Of a stretch of 34,106 nt of DNA, positions 15,785-17,908 are shown piece after piece. Position numbers and translations under genes: made by a program. The stretch comes from Candidatus Muiribacterium halophilum. GTDB taxonomy: Bacteria; Muiribacteriota; Muiribacteriia; Muiribacteriales; Muiribacteriaceae. The first letter of the stretch is position 1. Each line of letters starts with the position of its first letter. Location: the NCBI GenBank assembly GCA_002869225.1, contig PKTG01000012.1, positions 1 through 34,106 of the forward strand. The letters are read 5' to 3'. The notes under the pieces were generated by a model. That model searched no databases, had not been told where the DNA came from, and saw only the letters and a program-made list of their open reading frames with translations.

Positions 15785-16846
15785 TTAAGTATAAATAGCT
15801 ATATCGTTAATAATACAGTTTCTAAGATTTTCTACTTCGATATTATAAATATCACCAGAAAATTCTTTTATCTGTACTTTTTCAACATATTTTTCTTTAA
15901 GTACCTTTTCTTTTCTGTTATATACTGCCATTTGCATCGTTCTTCTGATATGTGAGGCAGGGAAAAAGAAAAATGGAGTTGATGTAGTAAGTTGAGATCT
16001 CATTATTATTTCTAGATCTTCAAAACTCGCCAGCACATTTGCAAAGTTAACGATCTCATCATAATCATTTCTGGTAGTGTTAATGTTCCATGCACTTTTA
16101 TTAGCAGGATCAAGAAGACTTGTCTTCCCGAAATTTATCTTGTTATGATCGATGTTGACGAAGATCCTATGTGGATGCCATTTATCATCTTCTTCAAGTT
16201 CTTTATTACCAAACATTATTAGCGTAAGCAATCTTGTTCCGAACTGTTTGTTAGGTGCGATAAAATATGGGTAATCCTTGTACATGTTAAGGTCTTCTAA
16301 AACCTGAAAAGCTCTTTCATCAGTAGGTATTATATTAAATATTCTATCAAGCAACTCCTGTGGAAAATTAAATTTATCATTTTTGGCTTCAAAATCTGTC
16401 ATTGGAATACCGTATTTATACGAGTAGATATGTTGCATAAAGTTAGCTTCAGTCTCATCGTGACAGATATCCAAAATAAAATGTTTATCTTCATAATTTA
16501 TATGATGTTTATTTAATCCACGAATATCGGTTTCCTGTCCTATTCTCCATCCAATATCCTCTCTTTTTATAAGAGTGATAAAATAGTTTGTGCCACTTGT
16601 ATCAAATTTAGAGAAACATACCTGTTTAGGTAGGACTTTAATCTTTTTTCTACCCTCAATGTTTATTTCAACTATAGGTCCGGAATATTTTTCTTTTTTT
16701 AAAGATCGTATCTTAGTAGGTATGACATTTCCAAATCCACAACAACTAAGAAGAGTATCTTTTTCTTTTAATTCTTCTATTCCAATATATCCATTTTGAG
16801 TAAGAATATCGTTTCCTGAAACCAGTCCTTCGAGAATTGCTGACAT
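15785..16846 (-). CDS. Stand-alone Hint (intein-like) domain protein without splicing residues
   Basis: The 353-residue protein has the outline of an intein with no host protein around it. The N terminus matches intein block A (about residues 8-30: SGNDILTQNGYIGIEELKEKD). The C terminus matches blocks F/G (331-353: GDIYNIEVENLRNCIINDIA). The splicing residues are gone: no Cys/Ser/Thr at position 1, the block B T-x-x-H is L-P-K-Q (72-75), the block F His is Arg342, and the terminal His-Asn is Tyr-Thr. The middle (about 97-215: GWRIGQ, ETEANFMQHIYSYKYGIP, DERAFQVLEDLNM, TLIMFG) resembles, from memory, the non-LAGLIDADG insert of Hint domains found in some UvrD-like helicases. The start has GGAGG 9 nt upstream. 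It is divergent from the helical-repeat gene. Fold likely; function unknown. Confidence 0.7.
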   Translation of the reverse strand: MSAILEGLVSGNDILTQNGYIGIEELKEKDTLLSCCGFGNVIPTKIRSLKKEKYSGPIVEINIEGRKKIKVLPKQVCFSKFDTSGTNYFITLIKREDIGWRIGQETDIRGLNKHHINYEDKHFILDICHDETEANFMQHIYSYKYGIPMTDFEAKNDKFNFPQELLDRIFNIIPTDERAFQVLEDLNMYKDYPYFIAPNKQFGTRLLTLIMFGNKELEEDDKWHPHRIFVNIDHNKINFGKTSLLDPANKSAWNINTTRNDYDEIVNFANVLASFEDLEIIMRSQLTTSTPFFFFPASHIRRTMQMAVYNRKEKVLKEKYVEKVQIKEFSGDIYNIEVENLRNCIINDIAIYT

Positions 16847-17011
16847 CTTATAGATCCTCCACCGTATTATAAAAACTAAATCATATCCAGTAAATATCTC
16901 TTTATTATAGTGTTAACTGGTATTTTATCAGTTAATTAAGTGAAAGACAAAAAATTATCGATATATATTATATAGCTGAAATATAAGAGAGAGTGAAATG
17001 AGGTGCTTTAT
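16847..17011. promoter_or_regulatory. Divergent promoter region between the Hint gene and the helical-repeat gene
   Basis: This 165-nt AT-rich gap must drive both flanking genes. On the minus strand a TATAAT at 16904-16909 would give a leader of about 50 nt for the Hint gene, though its -35 is poor. A second TATAAT (16866-16871) has TTTACT 17 nt upstream (16889-16894), but its start point would fall inside the Shine-Dalgarno sequence. On the plus strand there are several TATATT/TATATA matches around 16960-16975 and no good -35. Which boxes are used is not decided by the sequence. Confidence 0.35.
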
Positions 17012-17908
17012 ATGAATAAAAAAATCAATAACACATTATTTATGTATAACAAAGAGCTTAATGAAAATGAGCAACTTGAACTTTATACAATGCTTTATGA
17101 TTCATATGATTCGGATTATCTATCCAGACTGTTTTTTAACTCTGAAGATAATATATTAAAAAGAGCTATAAGTGTGATCCTAAATCTAAGAAAAAACGAA
17201 GATGACCTTCTTTTTTTTATAAACACCGTATTCGATAAAGACCCTGAGATCAGATTAAACTCTCTATTATATTTACGTGAAATGGATTTTTTTACAAAGA
17301 ATATTTCTCTTCTTGAAGATTTTATAGAAAAAGAAACAGATAAAAATCTAATCAATATTGCAAAGTTTTTAAAAGAAGATCTAAATGTTAATGTCTCTCA
17401 GACAAAAGAGACTGAACAGATAAAAGAGGAATCTAAGATAATAACTATTGAGCAGCATTTTAAAGAAAAGAAAACTGAAGTTGTTGTTAAAAAAACTGAA
17501 GATAATGAAAAAGATATAAATACAGAAGAGGTTGTTAATAACGAAGTATATGAATTTGTAAAGAAGAATATTGATAGTGAAGACAATATTGTACTTATGA
17601 ATTTGTCATTTAAAATTAAAAATGAAAGATTTCCTTCAAAAAAAGAATTTATCTTAAGACTTTTAAAAAGAGTGGAAAGCCATGCGGTAATAAAGAATCT
17701 TCTTCTTGGACTAAATACTGAAGATATATCTCAACCATACAGACGAGAAGTCTGCAGTATTCTTTCAAAGAAGACTTTCTTTAACGAATTAAAATATGAT
17801 CTACAGATGTTGAAGTTCTATGAAGTAAACGAATTTATGGGGAATCCACAGAGACCAGGATTTTTAAAAAGATGTGCTCTTTTTATGTTATCGACCTTCG
17901 GGATCTAA
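17012..17908 (+). CDS. Uncharacterised helical-repeat (HEAT-like) protein
   Basis: I do not recognise a named family. The protein (298 residues from the ATG at 17012) is soluble with no signal peptide or membrane helix. Residues about 15-120 read as successive amphipathic helix pairs, including [17 protein letters not shown], which is characteristic of HEAT repeats. A Lys/Glu/Thr-rich linker follows (about 125-175), then a second helical part to the C terminus. I chose ATG 17012 over the in-frame GTG 17003 because GAGGTG lies 6 nt upstream of the ATG. It is the only plus-strand gene in the central part of the window. It is divergent from the Hint gene and convergent with rpoD, sharing the four bases CTAA at 17905-17908 for both stop codons. 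HEAT folds usually serve as protein-binding scaffolds; the partner is unknown. Confidence 0.65.

What the first reader, a model, noticed from the sequence alone, without database searches (positions are those of the whole stretch)
15785..16846. Free-standing Hint protein that lost every splicing residue
Intein blocks A, F and G are recognisable at the two ends of a complete short ORF with its own Shine-Dalgarno sequence. Position 1, the block B Thr and His, the block F His and the terminal His-Asn are all changed, and no extein surrounds it. The middle resembles the insert of UvrD-associated Hint domains. An intact but splicing-dead Hint protein suggests a new function, for example DNA or ligand binding, or a partner of the divergent HEAT-like protein.
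Basis: partly seen in the sequence, partly recalled or inferred. Interest (0 to 1): 0.65.

Follow-up and report, generated by a model that had tools for sequence, protein, structure and literature searches.

The report
Domesticated splicing-dead UvrD intein gene
A self-splicing protein insert that normally sits inside the DNA-repair helicase UvrD has, in this bacterial phylum, become a separate gene that has lost its splicing and probably its DNA-cutting residues yet is still protected by natural selection, so it has very likely taken on a new job for the cell.

Summary
Confirmed and extended. ORF 15785-16846(-) encodes an intact 353-aa Hint-fold protein (AlphaFold pLDDT 83; Foldseek TM 0.85 to the RecA mini-intein) with no extein. 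All five class-1 splicing residues are gone (0/5 kept), while 37/57 other intein-invariant positions are kept. Homologues occur in 35 of 40 genomes of the phylum. Its closest kin are true inteins in motif III of UvrD/PcrA helicases (Ca. Wallbacteria, Clostridia, Endomicrobia; more distant phage homologues such as SPO1 and phi92), all with Cys1...His-Asn. In Ozemobacteraceae (Riflebacteria) the homologue is also free-standing and splicing-dead. It lies immediately 5' of an intein-free uvrD in 22/22 loci from 10 genera, with stop and start codons overlapping or a few bases apart, and is under strong purifying selection (dN/dS 0.03-0.14). All 14 in-helicase copies keep Cys1/His-Asn; none of 28 free-standing copies does. 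The insert looks like a GIY-YIG homing nuclease whose catalytic residues are intact in Clostridia and lost here. This is a domesticated intein, a bacterial counterpart of yeast HO that appears dead in both activities. Function is inferred: most likely a non-catalytic UvrD partner or regulator, less likely a DNA-site binder. The HEAT-like neighbour is not conserved.

The parts
15785..16846 (-). Free-standing, splicing-dead UvrD-type intein (Hint) gene, 353 aa, complete ORF
16604..16846 (-). N-terminal Hint half (residues 1-81); position-1 equivalent is Gly7 (16826-16828), block B is LPKQ (16622-16633) in place of TxxH
15974..16603 (-). Insert between the Hint halves (residues 82-291), homologous to the insert of UvrD/PcrA inteins
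16391..16603 (-). GIY-YIG-like part of the insert (residues 82-152), catalytic Tyr/Tyr/Arg/Glu not kept (0 of 4)
15974..16279 (-). Second, beta-rich part of the insert (about residues 190-291); the corresponding region is the most conserved one in the free-standing Ozemobacteraceae copies; fold not identified
15788..15973 (-). C-terminal Hint half (residues 292-353), ends in Tyr-Thr where inteins have His-Asn (15788-15793)
16856..16860 (-). Shine-Dalgarno GGAGG; TATAAT box at 16866-16871
   Evidence: consensus match only
17003..17908 (+). Divergent HEAT-like protein, proposed partner, not conserved with the Hint gene

Best explanation
The gene is a domesticated intein. An intein of the UvrD/PcrA helicase (inserted in motif III, GDxDQ^SIYxWRG) with a GIY-YIG-like homing-nuclease insert left its host gene, gained its own start and Shine-Dalgarno sequence, and lost both the splicing and the nuclease active sites. 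It is kept as a stable, non-catalytic protein. Most likely it binds UvrD/PcrA (or UvrD on DNA) through the old insert and modulates the helicase, in Ozemobacteraceae as a translationally coupled operon partner and in the window's genome in trans. Shown by sequence: the origin, the loss of splicing residues, selection on the Ozemobacteraceae copies, and the uvrD linkage there. Inferred: loss of nuclease activity, physical interaction with UvrD, and the direction of any effect.
For: Origin: best matches of the window protein are inteins inside UvrD at GDDDQ^C...HN^SIY; tree places it with them (91/93). Dead: 0/5 splicing and 0/4 nuclease positions kept against 37/57 other intein-invariant positions, Fisher p=0.008 for splicing versus other. 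All 14 in-helicase copies keep C1/T/H/HN; 0 of 28 free-standing copies keep C1 or the terminal HN. Selection: dN/dS 0.025-0.14 in the Ozemobacteraceae copies. UvrD link: the Hint gene is directly 5' of uvrD in 22/22 loci of 10 genera while the genes upstream vary, with overlapping or near-adjacent stop and start codons such as ATGA; in f2 (G001) the order is hint-galU-uvrD. Genomes with the free-standing gene that were checked (f1, f2, f5, f6) have an intein-free main UvrD; the in-helicase genomes (f3, f4) have no free-standing copy. The beta-rich part of the insert is the most conserved region after release (61% mean identity against 46% for HintN).
Against: In the window's own genome and in f6 the gene is not next to uvrD, and in f7 no uvrD was found near it. 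No interaction data exist, and a multimer model could not be run. Operon position could reflect where the intein landed rather than a functional link. No close relative of the window copy is held, so dN/dS could not be measured for it. Three f2 genomes lack the gene, so it is dispensable in some lineages.
Confidence: 0.5

Rival explanations
1. Domesticated DNA binder: the catalytically dead homing-endonuclease insert still recognises DNA, for example the empty intein site in uvrD, and acts as a repressor or shields the site from active UvrD inteins (anti-homing immunity).
For: The insert, not HintN, is the most constrained part. The Ozemobacteraceae beta region has a conserved basic stretch (FKRKQ-KHG). 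The empty site accompanies the free gene in the genomes checked. Active-looking inteins of the family circulate in phages.
Against: The window protein has net charge -6 and its insert is acidic. The catalytic GIY part decays fastest relative to inteins. DNA binding is untested and the fold of the beta part is unknown.
Confidence: 0.25
2. Independent exits: the window copy left UvrD separately from the Ozemobacteraceae copies, and each has its own, perhaps different, new function.
For: The tree puts the window with Firmicutes/Wallbacteria inteins; the label 'free' needs at least 2 changes in all bootstrap trees. Only the Ozemobacteraceae and f2 copies are uvrD-linked.
Against: The AU test does not reject one free-standing clade (p=0.22). 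The window branch is long.
Confidence: 0.4
3. A decaying relic with no function, still open by chance.
For: Catalytic sites lost; patchy loss in f2.
Against: A 353-codon open frame with native codon use, 65% retention of intein-invariant positions in the window copy, dN/dS of at most 0.14 across Ozemobacteraceae, phylum-wide retention.
Confidence: 0.05
4. An active split or trans-splicing intein, or an alternative-class intein, working on UvrD.
For: Hint fold kept.
Against: No Cys/Ser/Thr1, no C-terminal Asn and no split extein in the free-standing copies. UvrD is contiguous through the site in the f5, f2 and f6 genomes checked, and in the window's genome motif III is intact.
Confidence: 0.02

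Closest known systems
UvrD/PcrA (and phage UvrD-like, e.g. SPO1 gp34.33) inteins
   Same: Same Hint fold, same insert, detectable homology over the whole length (up to 33-34% identity), the presumed ancestor
   Different: Those lie inside the helicase at motif III and keep Cys1, TxxH and His-Asn; the window gene is free-standing with none of them
HO endonuclease and WHO elements of yeasts (PMC7282813)
   Same: Stand-alone, extein-less proteins derived from an intein; HO is domesticated
   Different: HO/WHO carry a LAGLIDADG nuclease with a zinc finger and act by cutting DNA; here a bacterial protein with a GIY-YIG-like insert whose catalytic residues are gone
Bacterial intein-like (BIL) domains and Hedgehog Hint
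   Same: Hint fold outside classical inteins
   Different: From established knowledge, BIL and Hog domains autoprocess larger proteins and keep the N-terminal nucleophile; this one is a whole protein without it
GIY-YIG homing endonucleases
   Same: Insert follows the Y...(Y/F/W)xG...R...E pattern in related inteins (A10)
   Different: All four catalytic positions changed in the window copy; similarity to the family is sub-threshold (Pfam E=0.0067 in one intein; hhalign E=1.3e-4)

Membership tests
Hint fold superfamily | Hint beta fold | tested here: met
   AlphaFold pLDDT 82.7, pTM 0.81; Foldseek 2in9 TMt 0.85, 1at0 0.79
Class 1 intein (UvrD/PcrA) | Inserted in frame in a host protein | tested here: not met
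   Own start, SD and stop, no extein; UvrD of the same genome is empty at the site
Class 1 intein (UvrD/PcrA) | Cys/Ser/Thr at position 1, block B TxxH, C-terminal His-Asn plus nucleophile | tested here: not met
   0 of 5 kept
Class 1 intein (UvrD/PcrA) | Common descent with UvrD inteins including the insert | tested here: met
   E 1e-59 to Wallbacteria UvrD inteins; trees
GIY-YIG nuclease | GIY-YIG sequence pattern and fold in the family's insert | tested here: inconclusive
   Pattern invariant in 15 inteins; Pfam E=0.0067; hhalign E=1.3e-4 against 7.5e-5 for two true GIY families and 0.015 for a control, but no match to the UvrC family and no fold match
GIY-YIG nuclease | Catalytic Tyr, Tyr, Arg, Glu in the window protein | tested here: not met
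   0 of 4
HO-like domesticated intein | Stand-alone, extein-less, intein-derived, under purifying selection | tested here: met
   (Ozemobacteraceae copies); dN/dS not measurable for the window copy
HO-like domesticated intein | Active site-specific nuclease | tested here: not met
   Catalytic residues absent; activity itself not tested
UvrD accessory protein | Physical or functional interaction with UvrD | not testable with these tools
   Only genomic linkage is available

The most novel reading that the evidence does not exclude
A dead intein turned guardian: the free-standing protein recognises the uvrD motif III region (DNA or protein) and keeps the helicase allele free of active UvrD inteins from phages and other bacteria, a domesticated anti-homing immunity protein.
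Probability: 0.12. Interest if true: 0.85.

Novelty: new variant of a known kind. Interest (0 to 1): 0.64.

Why it matters
Inteins are usually seen as parasites or, at most, as splicing switches. The clear precedent for a stand-alone domesticated intein that I found is yeast HO, which still cuts DNA. Here a bacterial intein appears to have lost both of its activities and is nevertheless kept across a phylum, next to its former host gene in Ozemobacteraceae. This makes the question of whether the Hint/HEN scaffold has a non-catalytic use directly testable, and it suggests a new UvrD/PcrA regulator.

Tried and rejected
HEAT-like partner: not conserved. Block F His as a diagnostic: rejected, since clostridial inteins also have Arg. 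'of' = a locus id is not accepted by the genome search, so the intein's distribution in Clostridia was not counted. The insert modelled alone was of low confidence (pLDDT 64) and gave no fold match. PADLOC and PHROGs gave nothing useful. No paper on free-standing inteins of this kind was found in the open library; subscription journals are not covered.

Full report
WHAT IS THERE. The ORF at 15785-16846(-) is complete, with ATG, a GGAGG Shine-Dalgarno sequence and TAA, and codon usage typical of its genome. Alone it matches Hint models only weakly. With relatives it folds as a confident Hint domain (pLDDT 82.7, pTM 0.81); the best PDB matches are inteins and Hedgehog.

RELATIVES. A search of the phylum found homologues in 34 of 40 genomes with the single sequence and in 35 with a profile. 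Record titles name the largest family as Ozemobacteraceae/Riflebacteria and family f4 as Ca. Wallbacteria; the window's own organism could not be named. Three arrangements exist. (a) Inside UvrD/PcrA as an intein: f4, with GDDDQ^C...HN^SIYSWRG. Eight loci from Clostridia and Endomicrobia have the same arrangement, and more distant homologues are annotated as inteins of UvrD-like helicases in phages such as SPO1 and CampHawk. In f3 the intein sits in a degenerate UvrD-like helicase. (b) Free-standing immediately 5' of an intein-free uvrD: all 22 Ozemobacteraceae loci with a full-length gene, 10 genera; in one f2 genome a very divergent copy is separated from uvrD only by galU. (c) Free-standing with no uvrD found next to it: f1 (the window), f6, f7. 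The window genome's only UvrD is empty at the intein site (GDEDQAIYGWRGAD).

LOSS OF FUNCTION, KEPT STRUCTURE. All 14 in-helicase copies keep Cys1, block B Thr and His and the terminal His-Asn. None of 28 free-standing copies keeps Cys1, the penultimate His or the terminal Asn; some Ozemobacteraceae copies keep block B Thr or His. The window copy keeps 0 of 5 splicing positions and 0 of 4 nuclease positions, but 37 of 57 other positions invariant in the inteins (p=0.008 for splicing versus other). dN/dS among Ozemobacteraceae copies is 0.025-0.14 (dS is often near saturation, so values are approximate), and 0.05-0.19 in f7.

THE INSERT. In 15 related inteins (Clostridia, phages, plasmids; some in DNA methyltransferases) the first part of the insert has an invariant Tyr, an aromatic-R-x-G, an invariant Arg and an invariant Glu, the GIY-YIG pattern. 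Support is moderate: Pfam E=0.0067 in one member. hhalign against stand-alone GIY-YIG domains gives E=1.3e-4, near the 7.5e-5 between two genuine GIY-YIG families and better than a control (0.015), but there is no match to the UvrC GIY-YIG set and no fold match. A 2006 survey stated that GIY-YIG domains had not been found in inteins (PMC1564403). After release the conserved region shifts: in Ozemobacteraceae the beta-rich second part is most conserved and HintN least.

EVOLUTION. Trees place the window copy with Wallbacteria and Firmicutes UvrD inteins rather than with the Ozemobacteraceae copies. A single free-standing clade is not rejected (AU p=0.22), and long branches make the placement unsure, so one or several exits remain possible.

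MECHANISM. Splicing is excluded on residues; nuclease activity is improbable. The conserved operon order with overlapping or near-adjacent stop and start codons, the origin in the helicase's motif III, and the exclusive distribution of free gene and in-helicase intein point to a UvrD-related role, most simply a non-catalytic partner. A DNA-binding role is the main rival. The window copy must act in trans. None of this is shown biochemically.

KNOWN OR NEW. UvrD/PcrA inteins are known (PMC5874633). Yeast HO is a known domesticated intein relative (PMC7282813). No report of a bacterial free-standing intein-derived gene without either activity was found in the library searched. I rate it a new variant of a known kind.

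Noticed in passing
L056 about 9051 (G000:C49, minus strand): The window genome's only UvrD/PcrA gene carries one in-frame TAG between the UvrD-helicase and UvrD_C parts; TAG serves as an ordinary stop in the window's genes, so this is a real nonsense mutation or an assembly error.
   Followed up: partly
L044:7759-8754(-), L048:4136-5128(-): Two f3 genomes have an intact-looking Cys1...HN intein in a UvrD-like helicase whose motif III has lost GDxDQ, plus a normal uvrD elsewhere.
   Followed up: partly
L062-L069, L144-L150: UvrD and methyltransferase inteins of Clostridia, phages and plasmids carry a GIY-YIG-like insert with invariant Tyr, Arg and Glu; the 2006 survey knew none in inteins.
   Followed up: partly
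L027, L035 and other Ozemobacteraceae loci: Conserved operon hint - uvrD - small membrane protein that looks like it has a carbohydrate-binding (E-set) domain - large protein that looks like GAF/HD-GYP (reading by eye), in 9-10 genera.
   Followed up: partly
window 17003-17908 (+): HEAT-like protein without convincing homologues in the other 39 genomes of the phylum, between the Hint gene and a sigma-70 factor gene.
   Followed up: yes
L088:7002-8069(-): Extremely divergent free-standing homologue (profile E=2.8e-11) in an mnmA - hint - galU - uvrD gene run of family f2; two other f2 genomes keep mnmA and galU side by side but lack it.
   Followed up: partly
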